This document shows, piece by piece, positions 9,723 to 19,322 of a DNA stretch of 64,000 bases. This DNA is from an uncultured Lentisphaerota bacterium (GTDB lineage: Bacteria; Verrucomicrobiota; Kiritimatiellia; CAIQIC01). Position 1 is the first letter of the stretch; each line of letters opens with the position of its first letter. Position numbers and translations under genes: made by a program. Location of the stretch: positions 1 to 64,000 of the forward strand of contig CAISWQ010000033.1 in assembly GCA_903889245.1 (NCBI GenBank). Reading direction: 5' to 3'. The notes beneath the pieces were generated by a model. That model searched no databases and was not told the DNA's origin. It saw only the letters and a program-made list of their open reading frames with translations.

Positions 9723-12611
9723 ATGAAGAAAGTTCTCCACGTTGGATGGGCCTTGTGGGCCTGTGCGGTGTTGGCGCGCGCGGCGCTGCCGGACTCGCTG
9801 GTGATCCAGTTGACCGAGACCTACACCACGGCGATGAAGGCCTTCGAGGCGGGCCGCTGGACGGAGGCCGCCGCCGGTTTGAGCAAGCTGGTGGCCAAGG
9901 TCACCGACCCGGCCGACCAGGCGAAGATCGGGCCGGTTTATTACACCGTGGGGGCGGCCCACTACAACGCGAAGCAGTACCCGCAGGCGGCCGCCGCGTT
10001 CCAGATTTTCCTGACCAAATTCCCGGATGATCCGCGCGCGCGGCAGGCGCGGCTGGCGCAGGCGCGCGCGACTTACCTCGCCAAGCAGTATGAAGCGGCC
10101 ATTCCGCTGTTCGCCGCCTATGAGGGCGTACCGGCCATGCGTTATCAGTCGCTGCTGGTGCAGGCCGAGTGTTTCAAGGCGCTCAAGAAGGACACGGAGC
10201 AGATGGCGGTGCTGGAGCGGCTGATGCTGCCGGACATCGGCGCCGCCCAGCAGGCCGAGGGCGCGCTGACGTTGATCGAACTCTATTTCCACAAGGACCA
10301 GACCGACAAGGCGCTGGAACTGCTCAACAAGCTGCACGCGCGCATCGCGGTGGTGGATAACGTGGTGGCGCTCAACCTGCTGACCGTGAAGCTCGGCGAC
10401 GAGCTGGCGGAGAAGAAAGCCTATGAGCAGGCGCTGCGCGCCTACCGCGAAGTGCGGACGCGCGAACAGGTGCTCGATTTCCAGACCAACCGCATCGCCG
10501 CCCTGGAGCAGCGCATCCAGGCCAATCAGCGTTATCTGCGCAGCGGGCGGCTCGATGCGGTGCAGGTGGCCAGCGCGAACCAGGAGCTGGAGGCGGCGGT
10601 GGAACACGCACGGAAACTGCTCGCGGTGCAGGAAAAAATGCCGGATCACCTGCCGGGCGTGGTGCTGCGGATGGGGCGCGTCTATTATGACTGGGGCCGG
10701 AAGTGGGAGGCGATCAGCGCCTTTGATTCGCTCCTAGCCGAGCATCCGAAAACGAAGGAGTGCGAGCCGGCGCTCTACGCGATGCTGGTCTGCTACGCCG
10801 ACCTCAACCGCGTCGCCCGCACGCAGGCCATGTGCGAGCGCTACCTCAAAGAATTTCCCAAGGGGCCGAATGCGGCCGGCGTGGGCTATTTGCTTGGCGC
10901 GGTTTCGTTGGAGGCGGGCGAGCCCAAACGTGCGGCGACGTTCTTCGGCCGCATCCTCGACGAGCAGCCGCAGAGCCCGCTGCGCGAGCAGTTGATTCTC
11001 GGGCTGGGCAATTCCTACGCGATGATGGGCCAGCACGTGGAGTCGCGCCGGGAATACCGGCGCTACCTGCGCGATTTCCCCAAGGGTCAGTTCCTCGAGG
11101 ACGCGCTCTATCGCGAGGCGCTGGCGACCGTCTTCCTGGGCGAGTATGAGGCCGCGCTGAAGTCGCTCAACGCCTACGTCCAGAAATATCCGCAGGGCGC
11201 CTACGCGGCCGATGCGGGCTACCGCCTTATGGTGTGCAAGTACGCCGGCTCGCTCTATGGCGAGGTGGTGGCCGATGCCCAACAGTGGCACAAGAAGTTT
11301 CCGAATCACCAGATTGCGGGTGAGATTTTTGCCGTCACCGCCGACGCCCATGCCGCGGAAAACAAACACGCCGAGGCGGCCGCGGCCTATCAGCAGGCGT
11401 TCAAGAGGGCCTCCACCGATGAGGTGCTGAACTACGCCCTGTTCGAGGCCGGCAAGCAACTGCAGAAGCTCGGCGACTGGCCGGCGGTCGCGAAGATGTT
11501 CGAGGATTTCGTGCGCGATAATCCGAACCATGCCTCGGTGGTGGCGGCGATGTACTGGATCAGCCGCGCGAAGCAGCGCGAGGGCAAGCCGGAGGAGGCC
11601 AAGGCGCTGATCATCACGCAGCTCAAGCGCGACCTGAACGAGCCGAAGCGCGAGGCGGTCGAGCAACTGCTCCAGCAGCTCGCGCAGCTCTGCGCGAAGC
11701 GGCCGCGTCCGCCAGCGCTGCCGGCCGCGGACACGAACGCCGTGGCCGCCGCTGCCGCCACGAATGCGCCGGCCGCCGCCGCCACCAACGCGGTCGCCGT
11801 CGCGCCGCCGCTCCCGCCGCCCTACGATCCCTTCCCGGAGCTGAAGCAGCAGTTGGAACCGCTGGCGGACCTGGCGAACGCGACCGGCCGGGCGCGCCTG
11901 CTCTACGCCGAGGCCGAACTGTGCAAACTGCGCCGGCAGAACGCCGACGTGCAAGACATCTATGACCGGCTGGCGAAGGACTTCACGCCGGAGCAGTTAA
12001 GCCCGGTGTTGCTCGCGCTCGTCGGCGATCACCTTCTGGAGAAGGGTGACCGCGTCAAGGCGGCGAAGTTCTTTGAGGACCTGCGCGAGGATTATCCGAA
12101 GAGCAACTACCTGGACTTCGCCTTCAACGGCCTCGGCGAAATCGCGCTGGCGGGCGGCCAGGCGCGCAAGGCGCTGGAGCTGTTCACCACGGCCGCCGAC
12201 GACCTCGCCGCGCTGAAGATCAAGGACGCGACGCTGGGCAAGGCGCGTGCGCTGCTGGAATTGGGGAAATATCCAGAGGCCAAGAAACTGTTCGCGCAGG
12301 TCGCCAGCACGCGCGAGTGGCGCGGCGAGTCCACGGCCGCGGCGGTCTTCTATCTCGGCGAGCTGGAGGCGAAGCAGGGGCGCTATCCCGAGGCGATCGC
12401 GCACTATCAGCGCGTGTTCGTGGCCTACCAGAAATTCCTGCCGTGGGCCGCGCGCGCCTATGTGCGCGGCGCGGACTGCTTCGACAAGCTCGGCAAGCGC
12501 GCCGAGGCCATCGGGCATCTGCGCGAGATGCTGCGCAACGCGAAGCTGAAGGATTTCCCCGAGACGGAACAGGCGCGCAAGCTGTTGGACACGTGGGGGG
12601 CCGCTTCGTGA
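9723..12611 (+). CDS. TPR-repeat protein with signal peptide
   Basis: Repeated TPR-like helices (YYTVGAAHYNAKQYPQAAAAFQIFL); disordered Ala/Pro linker about aa 655-700. Confidence 0.85.
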   Translation: MKKVLHVGWALWACAVLARAALPDSLVIQLTETYTTAMKAFEAGRWTEAAAGLSKLVAKVTDPADQAKIGPVYYTVGAAHYNAKQYPQAAAAFQIFLTKFPDDPRARQARLAQARATYLAKQYEAAIPLFAAYEGVPAMRYQSLLVQAECFKALKKDTEQMAVLERLMLPDIGAAQQAEGALTLIELYFHKDQTDKALELLNKLHARIAVVDNVVALNLLTVKLGDELAEKKAYEQALRAYREVRTREQVLDFQTNRIAALEQRIQANQRYLRSGRLDAVQVASANQELEAAVEHARKLLAVQEKMPDHLPGVVLRMGRVYYDWGRKWEAISAFDSLLAEHPKTKECEPALYAMLVCYADLNRVARTQAMCERYLKEFPKGPNAAGVGYLLGAVSLEAGEPKRAATFFGRILDEQPQSPLREQLILGLGNSYAMMGQHVESRREYRRYLRDFPKGQFLEDALYREALATVFLGEYEAALKSLNAYVQKYPQGAYAADAGYRLMVCKYAGSLYGEVVADAQQWHKKFPNHQIAGEIFAVTADAHAAENKHAEAAAAYQQAFKRASTDEVLNYALFEAGKQLQKLGDWPAVAKMFEDFVRDNPNHASVVAAMYWISRAKQREGKPEEAKALIITQLKRDLNEPKREAVEQLLQQLAQLCAKRPRPPALPAADTNAVAAAAATNAPAAAATNAVAVAPPLPPPYDPFPELKQQLEPLADLANATGRARLLYAEAELCKLRRQNADVQDIYDRLAKDFTPEQLSPVLLALVGDHLLEKGDRVKAAKFFEDLREDYPKSNYLDFAFNGLGEIALAGGQARKALELFTTAADDLAALKIKDATLGKARALLELGKYPEAKKLFAQVASTREWRGESTAAAVFYLGELEAKQGRYPEAIAHYQRVFVAYQKFLPWAARAYVRGADCFDKLGKRAEAIGHLREMLRNAKLKDFPETEQARKLLDTWGAAS

Positions 12612-18240: not shown

Positions 18241-19322
18241 TGAGCACACCCCGCCAATCCAACCTTGACCTGGGCGCGTGGCTCGCGAGCCTCGGCTGTG
18301 CCGAACACGCCGCCGCGTTTGCCGCCAACGACATCACGCCCGAGTTGCTGCCGACCCTCACGGACGAGGACTTGCAGGAACTCGGCGTGAGCGATGCCGC
18401 GCAGCGCGCGACGTTGCTGGCGGCGATAGCCGCGGGGCCTGTACAGCCGCCCGCGCCACCGCCGCCCAGCCCGCCCGCCCCGCGGCGCGCGCCACCGCCG
18501 CCAGAGCGGCGGCCCATGACCGCGCCACCGCGCGCCGCGCCGCTGGCCGCGCCCCGCCCGCAGCCACAGCCGCCCCCTCCCGTCACGCCGGCACCGGCGC
18601 CGCAATCGGAAGTCGTAATGCCGCTGGCTGTGGCCCCGCAGAAAAGGCAACTCATCGTGCCGCGTTCCGTACCGGCACCCGCCGCGCCAGTGGCTTTCCA
18701 GCCAGCGCCCGCGCAGCCTGCGGCGGCTTCCCATAAGGCCCTGCTCATCACGCTGATTGTGCTCTCCACGCTGACCGTCACCGGCATCGGCGTCCTGGTG
18801 GGAATCTATCTTGCGCGGAAACCACCGCCGGTCATCGTGGCCAGTGCGCCGCCCGTGGCGCAACCGCCGCCGGCCGTACCAGCAGCCCTCCCGCCCGCGA
18901 AACAACCGGCGTCCGCCGCCAAGGTGGCTGCGCTCGTGCCCAGCACCGTCGTCCTGCTGGCGCGGGAGGCGAAGCTTCACGGTATCGCCCTCGATAAAGA
19001 GAAGGCGGTGATCCAAGGGTGGGACAAACCCGGCGACCATGCCGAGTGGCGCGTCGCCATCCGCGCGCCGGGCCGCTACGACGTGAAGATGGACTACGCC
19101 AAATACGGCGGCGCCGCCGACCTGATCCTCGTGTGTGCCGGACAAAAGATGCAGGCCAAACTCGGCAGCACCGGCGCGTGGACCAGCTTCAAGGAAACCA
19201 ACCTCGGATCCGTGCGCATCGCCAAGGCCGGCGACTGCACCGTGCTGGTGAAAAGCGCCAATCCCAAGGCCGCCCTGAAAATCAACCTCCGCGCCCTCAC
19301 CCTCGCCCCGGCGGCGCCCTAG
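18240..19322 (+). CDS. SAM domain, Pro-rich linker, TM, carbohydrate-binding-like domain
   Basis: LGAWLASLGCAEHAAAFAANDITPELLPTLTDEDLQELGV; TM ALLITLIVLSTLTVTGIGVLVGIYLA; C-term EWRVAIRAPGRYDVKMDYA. Confidence 0.78.
   Translation: MSTPRQSNLDLGAWLASLGCAEHAAAFAANDITPELLPTLTDEDLQELGVSDAAQRATLLAAIAAGPVQPPAPPPPSPPAPRRAPPPPERRPMTAPPRAAPLAAPRPQPQPPPPVTPAPAPQSEVVMPLAVAPQKRQLIVPRSVPAPAAPVAFQPAPAQPAAASHKALLITLIVLSTLTVTGIGVLVGIYLARKPPPVIVASAPPVAQPPPAVPAALPPAKQPASAAKVAALVPSTVVLLAREAKLHGIALDKEKAVIQGWDKPGDHAEWRVAIRAPGRYDVKMDYAKYGGAADLILVCAGQKMQAKLGSTGAWTSFKETNLGSVRIAKAGDCTVLVKSANPKAALKINLRALTLAPAAP

What the first reader, a model, noticed from the sequence alone, without database searches (positions are those of the whole stretch)
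9723..19322. Candidate undescribed PMF-coupled envelope system: TPR-TPR-ExbB-ExbD-ExbD plus three SAM-domain membrane effectors
Seen: eight consecutive + strand genes, several with overlapping stop/start (12608/12611, 15228/15231, 18240). Three encode an N-terminal SAM domain, a single TM and different C-terminal domains (VWA with MIDAS, PA14-like, CBM-like). The TM of the first two, LLVSICVHLLFGVGATLYVV, has S-I-C-V-H. Established knowledge: E. coli TonB has S-V-C-I-H (the SxxxH motif needed for ExbB/ExbD coupling). Inference: these are TonB-like transducers whose periplasmic ends are VWA/PA14 modules instead of a TonB C-terminal domain, with cytoplasmic SAM domains for oligomerisation or partner choice.
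Basis: partly seen in the sequence, partly recalled or inferred. Interest (0 to 1): 0.88.

Follow-up and report, generated by a model that had tools for sequence, protein, structure and literature searches.

The report
TonB-like transducers with swappable ends
A bacterial operon pairs one proton-driven membrane motor with several membrane rods that carry the motor-docking signature of TonB but different ends on both sides of the membrane; the basic design was published in 2025, and what is new here is the variety of ends, including cytoplasmic SAM domains and, in relatives, protein-kinase domains.

Summary
Window 9723-19322 holds two secreted TPR proteins, ExbB, two different ExbDs and three SAM-domain membrane proteins. 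SAM, VWA (with MIDAS) and PA14 are confirmed by Pfam and predicted structures; the third head is only weakly DUF5077-like.

The SxxxH motif is the most conserved part of the transmembrane helix: His 100%, Ser 93% in 60 non-redundant relatives. The motor keeps its essential residues, and the ExbB serine that contacts TonB is invariant. ExbD lies directly upstream of 41 of 67 relatives with enough sequence.

The core is not undescribed. Williams-Jones et al. 2025 (PMC12204202) reported vWA transducers beside TPR, TolQ and two TolR genes in the PVC group. I found no report of the rest:
- one TM-linker cassette carrying VWA, PA14 or alpha/alpha-toroid heads;
- cytoplasmic SAM domains, found in this genome only in these three proteins;
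- relatives with a Ser/Thr kinase before the motor-docking helix, two of them directly behind ExbD2;
- a window cassette 95% identical in DNA between the VWA and PA14 genes.

The third SAM protein lacks SxxxH and probably joins through its SAM domain. New variant of a known kind; function unproven.

The parts
9306..9668 (+). small secreted protein, same strand, 55 bp before the operon; membership uncertain
   Evidence: signal-peptide-like start; no Pfam match
9723..12611 (+). TPR1, large secreted TPR protein
   Evidence: TPR_6 1e-31; YbgF/CpoB-type TPR model matched; homologues in the same position in related loci
12608..13465 (+). TPR2, smaller secreted protein with weak TPR
   Evidence: TPR_16 2e-6, below cut-off; homologues conserved in position
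13473..14285 (+). ExbB/TolQ-type motor subunit
   Evidence: MotA_ExbB 4e-24; T163, T196, P205 and S57 100% conserved in the family, aligned with E. coli ExbB T148, T181, TM3 Pro and S34
14317..14778 (+). ExbD1
   Evidence: ExbD 1e-15; D22 100% conserved
14782..15231 (+). ExbD2
   Evidence: ExbD 1e-18; D23 100% conserved
15228..16622 (+). SAM-TM-VWA transducer
15249..15416 (+). SAM domain 1
   Evidence: model pLDDT about 95
15642..16052 (+). TM-linker cassette, with S-I-C-V-H at 15672-15686
   Evidence: 95% identical in DNA to 17056-17466; positions
16068..16616 (+). VWA head with MIDAS
   Evidence: Pfam and Foldseek; MIDAS invariant
16642..18240 (+). SAM-TM-PA14 transducer
16663..16848 (+). 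SAM domain 2
17056..17466 (+). TM-linker cassette, with S-I-C-V-H at 17086-17100
17485..18054 (+). PA14 head
   Evidence: Pfam 2e-5; Foldseek to sugar-binding PA14 domains
18240..19322 (+). third SAM-TM protein, no SxxxH, head weakly DUF5077/CBM-like
18261..18431 (+). SAM domain 3

Best explanation
The operon encodes one proton-driven 5:2-type motor (ExbB pentamer with ExbD1 and ExbD2 in the pore) and two transducers that dock on the side of ExbB through the S-H face of their TM helix, as TonB and TolA do. About 110 residues of basic/proline and glycine-rich linker carry each head (VWA, PA14) across the periplasm toward cell-wall, outer-membrane or surface-glycan ligands, where the motor pulls on them. 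The two secreted TPR proteins are periplasmic partners, analogous to CpoB in Tol-Pal. On the cytoplasmic side the SAM domains cluster the transducers and recruit the third SAM protein, which has no docking motif. In relatives the same position holds a Ser/Thr kinase, so the cytoplasmic end may report engagement or load as well as organise the complex. Shown here: domains, gene order, conservation of docking residues on both partners, intact motor residues, SAM exclusivity in this genome, cassette sharing. Inferred: docking itself, force, ligands, SAM-SAM contact, signalling.
For: His 100% and Ser 93% in 60 representatives. Reciprocal ExbB serine S57 (aligned with E. coli S34), pore threonines and TM3 proline 100% conserved; both ExbDs keep the proton-site Asp. 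ExbD directly upstream of 41 of 67 transducers and a recurrent TPR1-TPR2-ExbB-ExbD1-ExbD2-transducer order. Same cassette joined to VWA, PA14 or toroid heads. Cassette nearly identical in the two window genes, 20 synonymous and 2 non-synonymous codon differences, as expected if both serve one motor. SAM domains found nowhere else in the genome. Published AF3 model of the vWA members docks the His on the motor (PMC12204202).
Against: No structure of the complex could be computed. L and S of SHLS are not kept, and the Trp of the ExbB contact network is replaced. 26 of 67 relatives have no ExbD directly upstream. No ligand, phenotype or force measurement exists. Kinase-bearing relatives could mean that signalling, not force, is the main job.
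Confidence: 0.6

Rival explanations
1. Mainly an inward signalling receptor: heads sense glycan or surface contact, the motor only tensions or gates the helix, and the cytoplasmic kinase (relatives) or SAM scaffold (window) is the output.
For: 17 listed protein clusters have a kinase domain before the same TM cassette, some with SAM as well; Pkinase matches 1e-41 to 3e-47 with catalytic motifs in those examined; in L019 and L026 the kinase gene directly follows ExbD2.
Against: The window has no kinase here, and many relatives have only a short N-terminus with no cytoplasmic domain (93 of 167), so signalling cannot be the general function of the cassette.
Confidence: 0.2
2. An adhesion or gliding-type machine: the motor moves surface-bound VWA/PA14 adhesins, like AglRQS with its two ExbD-type subunits, which also resembles the authors' suggestion for vWA transducers.
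For: One ExbB with two ExbDs; adhesin-like heads, the PA14 fold being closest to sugar-binding adhesins; suggestion in PMC12204202.
Against: No gliding-specific genes were identified in the operon; homology to AglRQS was not tested; many copies occur in genomes with no known motility link.
Confidence: 0.12
3. The SxxxH resemblance is convergent and the SAM proteins are cell-envelope scaffolds or receptors that merely share an operon with a motor.
For: 26 of 67 transducers have no ExbD directly upstream; the L and S of SHLS are lost.
Against: An invariant histidine inside a TM helix over 60 divergent representatives, with the ExbB contact serine also invariant, is hard to explain without that function.
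Confidence: 0.06

Closest known systems
vWA force transducers with TPR-TolQ-TolR-TolR (Williams-Jones et al. 2025, PMC12204202)
   Same: Gene set, order, S/H-type TM helix, disordered linker, vWA head, presence in the PVC group.
   Different: The text describes only vWA heads; it does not mention PA14 or sterile alpha motifs, kinases, alpha/alpha toroids, or several heads on one cassette. A motif-less third SAM protein is also new.
TonB-ExbBD and TolA-TolQR
   Same: ExbB/ExbD residues, S and H of the SHLS motif, N-in single TM, periplasm-spanning linker.
   Different: No TonB/TolA C-terminal domain; L and S of SHLS lost; folded cytoplasmic domain before the TM; two different ExbDs.
AglRQS gliding motor of Myxococcus
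   Same: One TolQ-like and two TolR-like subunits (established knowledge).
   Different: Homology not tested; has no such transducers as far as I know.
PknB-type receptor Ser/Thr kinases (for the kinase-bearing relatives)
   Same: Cytoplasmic kinase, one TM, external binding domain (P0126 best NCBIfam match is PknB, below cut-off).
   Different: The TM carries the motor-docking motif and, in L019 and L026, the gene follows ExbD2; the external head is PA14, no PASTA domain was found.

Membership tests
vWA force transducers (PMC12204202) | TM helix with the Ser and His of SHLS | tested here: met
   Residues S149 and H153 in both transducers; conserved in the family
vWA force transducers (PMC12204202) | Leu and final Ser of SHLS | tested here: not met
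   A (83%) and V/I at these positions
vWA force transducers (PMC12204202) | Downstream of TPR, TolQ-like and two TolR-like genes | tested here: met
vWA force transducers (PMC12204202) | C-terminal vWA head | tested here: met
   Met for 15228-16622; not met for 16642-18240, which has PA14
vWA force transducers (PMC12204202) | Direct sequence homology to the Tichowtungia proteins | not tested
   Those sequences were not fetched
TonB/TolA | TonB_C or TolA C-terminal domain | tested here: not met
   No such Pfam match in the three proteins; two TonB_C proteins lie elsewhere in the genome
ExbB/TolQ motor family | MotA_ExbB domain with both pore threonines | tested here: met
ExbB/TolQ motor family | Cut-off of the NCBIfam tolQ or exbB equivalog models | tested here: not met
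   66.6 bits against 221 for tolQ and 40.1 against 206.2 for exbB: a family member but not TolQ or ExbB proper
ExbD/TolR family | ExbD domain with the TM aspartate | tested here: met
   D22 and D23, 100% in relatives
SAM domain | Pfam SAM above cut-off and helical-bundle fold | tested here: met
   Three proteins above cut-off; helical bundle at high confidence in two models
SAM domain | SAM-SAM association | not testable with these tools
   Needs binding data or multimer modelling
PA14 sugar-binding domain | PA14 fold | tested here: met
   Pfam 2e-5; Foldseek E about 1e-7 to sugar-bound PA14 domains
PA14 sugar-binding domain | Sugar binding | not testable with these tools
   Needs a glycan array
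AglRQS gliding motor | Homology to AglR, AglQ and AglS | not tested
   Only the one-plus-two subunit composition was compared, from established knowledge

The most novel reading that the evidence does not exclude
A general transducer platform in Verrucomicrobiota: one PMF motor drives a set of TonB-like rods with interchangeable glycan- or protein-binding heads outside and interchangeable SAM or Ser/Thr-kinase modules inside, so that mechanical engagement at the surface is read out in the cytoplasm as kinase activity or SAM clustering. That would be a motor-gated receptor kinase.
Probability: 0.2. Interest if true: 0.87.

Novelty: new variant of a known kind. Interest (0 to 1): 0.62.

Why it matters
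If right, ExbBD-type motors power much more than TonB and TolA: one docking cassette is reused with different heads and with cytoplasmic scaffold or kinase domains. That gives a direct handle on what the many unassigned ExbB/ExbD motors of the PVC group do, and suggests that a PMF motor may be tied to cytoplasmic signalling through the same helix that transmits force.

Tried and rejected
Anti-phage defence: no PADLOC hit except a weak TerY match to the VWA (7.5e-4); rejected.

TonB replacement: the genome has two TonB_C proteins, one of them beside an ExbBD pair on contig C102, and four TonB-dependent receptors; rejected.

SAM as a widely used scaffold with many SAM partners: no SAM match outside this operon.

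Search for an empty site in three genus mates: the left-hand neighbour (UPF0047) is present, but the right-hand flank is not found next to it, so it is inconclusive.

Cassette homogenisation as a general rule: in other genomes neighbouring transducers with different heads share the cassette at only about 69-72% DNA identity, so the 95% in the window is a local event.

Full report
OBSERVATION. Pfam supports TPR, MotA_ExbB, two ExbD and three SAM domains above cut-off; VWA_2 and PA14 are just above their cut-offs, and the third head is a sub-threshold DUF5077 match. AlphaFold2 of the first two proteins gives a well-scored SAM, a TM helix of about 35 residues, a short helix after it, a low-confidence glycine-rich stretch and a well-scored head. 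Foldseek returns VWA domains for the first and sugar-binding adhesin PA14 domains for the second. MIDAS residues are invariant among 32 relatives. Both TPR-type proteins start with signal-peptide-like sequence (read), so they are probably periplasmic.

MOTIF TEST. A search with the first SAM protein found 106 proteins. Their shared part is neither the SAM nor the head but a segment of about 120 residues: TM helix, basic/proline stretch, start of the glycine linker. Of 92 sequences with the TM, 98% keep Ser and 100% keep His. After adding loci from the phylum and thinning to 60 representatives below 70% core identity, His is 100% and Ser 93%, the rest mostly Thr. The other two SHLS positions are A and V/I, so only half of the motif is kept. 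Reciprocally, ExbB S57, which HMMER aligns with E. coli ExbB S34, is 100% conserved in this ExbB family, as are the two pore threonines and the TM3 proline, and both ExbDs keep the proton-site aspartate. [quoted passage not shown] the identity of that Ser as S34 is my reading of the alignment. The Trp is not conserved here.

GENE ORDER AND DISTRIBUTION. Named loci are nearly all Verrucomicrobiota, mostly Chthoniobacterales and Akkermansiaceae/Prosthecobacter; two are labelled only 'bacterium' or 'PVC group', and one is a short match in a Prochlorococcus record, which I disregard. In a sample of 394 genomes of the phylum, 98 have a cassette match. The order TPR1-TPR2-ExbB-ExbD1-ExbD2-transducer recurs. 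Of 67 transducers with at least 1 kb upstream, 41 have ExbD directly before them. The others are orphans or second and third transducers, and up to nine matches occur in one genome. The window's own genome has a second motor on contig C62 with two ExbDs and an SxxxH-type helix joined to an alpha/alpha-toroid domain.

ARCHITECTURES. Among 167 distinct family proteins, heads are VWA, PA14 or others, and N-termini are short (93), SAM (55) or longer without SAM (19). The 'other' heads scanned are mostly squalene-cyclase-like alpha/alpha toroids. In a second search, 17 listed protein clusters carry a kinase domain before the TM, some with SAM as well. P0076, P0109 and P0126 match Pkinase at 1e-43 to 3e-47, and the VAIK lysine, HxDxKxxN and DFG motifs are present in those read. 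In L019 and L026 such a gene directly follows ExbD2. I found no publication describing this; the library searched is open-access PMC only.

SAM EXCLUSIVITY. The genome (5.26 Mb, 96.6% complete) has SAM_1 matches only in these three proteins, and 14 control genomes have none. Within the limits of the profile and the assembly, the three SAM domains can pair only with one another or with non-SAM partners. The third protein has no SxxxH. Its only full-length homologue, P0108, lies on a contig of the same length (232163) as P0002, an 86%-identical SAM-VWA protein, so the two are probably linked there too. SAM-mediated recruitment is the simplest reading of why it is in the operon; this is inference.

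CASSETTE HOMOGENISATION. Between the VWA and PA14 genes the cassette is 95% identical over 413 bp, with sharp edges just before the TM and just after the glycine tract. It has 20 synonymous and 2 non-synonymous codon differences in 137, against 9 and 16 in 47 SAM codons. This points to a recent cassette copy or gene conversion plus selection, and to both proteins serving the same partner. Elsewhere neighbouring transducers with different heads share only the cassette at DNA level, at about 69-72%.

ORIGIN. The window's ExbB falls in a group with Chthoniobacterales, Akkermansiaceae and other sequences from outside its class (100/99 support for the larger group), apart from the ExbBs of its own class. 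HemW on the same contig follows the genome's own taxonomy, 80% identical to a genus mate. The three genus mates searched lack the cassette. This suggests lateral gain of the operon between classes; sampling is thin and no empty site was shown. A 123-bp direct repeat, 96% identical, brackets the operon.

PRIOR ART AND VERDICT. Williams-Jones et al. 2025 (PMC12204202) found vWA proteins with TonB-like topology and an SHLS helix beside TPR, TolQ and two TolR genes in the PVC group, and modelled their docking through the His. The additions here are the SAM and kinase cytoplasmic ends, interchangeable heads on one cassette, the motif-less third SAM protein, and the reciprocal conservation on ExbB. 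I rate it a new variant of a known kind.

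Noticed in passing
window-wide, e.g. 155-171, 5269-5285, 8322-8338, 39250-39297, 56778-56919, 61240-61288: A palindromic repeat, core TTTTCCAAGSCNTGGAA, often in arrays with about 31-bp spacing. 50 matches in the window with one mismatch allowed (0 expected), and about 690 exact matches per strand in the genome against 0 for the reversed pattern. Function unknown.
   Followed up: partly
9014-9135 and 19353-19475: A 123-bp direct repeat, 96% identical and built from the palindromic repeat, brackets the operon and its small upstream gene; possibly a trace of how the operon was gained or copied.
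   Followed up: partly
234-1289, 6424-8400, 19642-21948, 46553-50281: Carbohydrate-active genes around the operon: SASA-type esterase, alpha-L-fucosidase, GH2 and GH106. Fits a polysaccharide-degrading lifestyle.
   Followed up: no
L004:6549-9621 (own genome, contig C62): A second ExbB-ExbD-ExbD set followed by a protein with an SxxxH-type TM (GSAIFHVIIIVVLI) and a squalene-cyclase-like toroid domain, without SAM.
   Followed up: partly
L019:2887-5208, L026:3174-5546; proteins P0076 and P0109-P0126: Ser/Thr kinases fused to the motor-docking TM cassette and a PA14-type head, directly behind ExbD2 in the two loci. Probably worth a study of its own.
   Followed up: partly
L036-L039, L044, L067, L068: A clade of vWA transducers with Thr in place of the motif Ser (T-x-x-x-H in most), His kept.
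   Followed up: no
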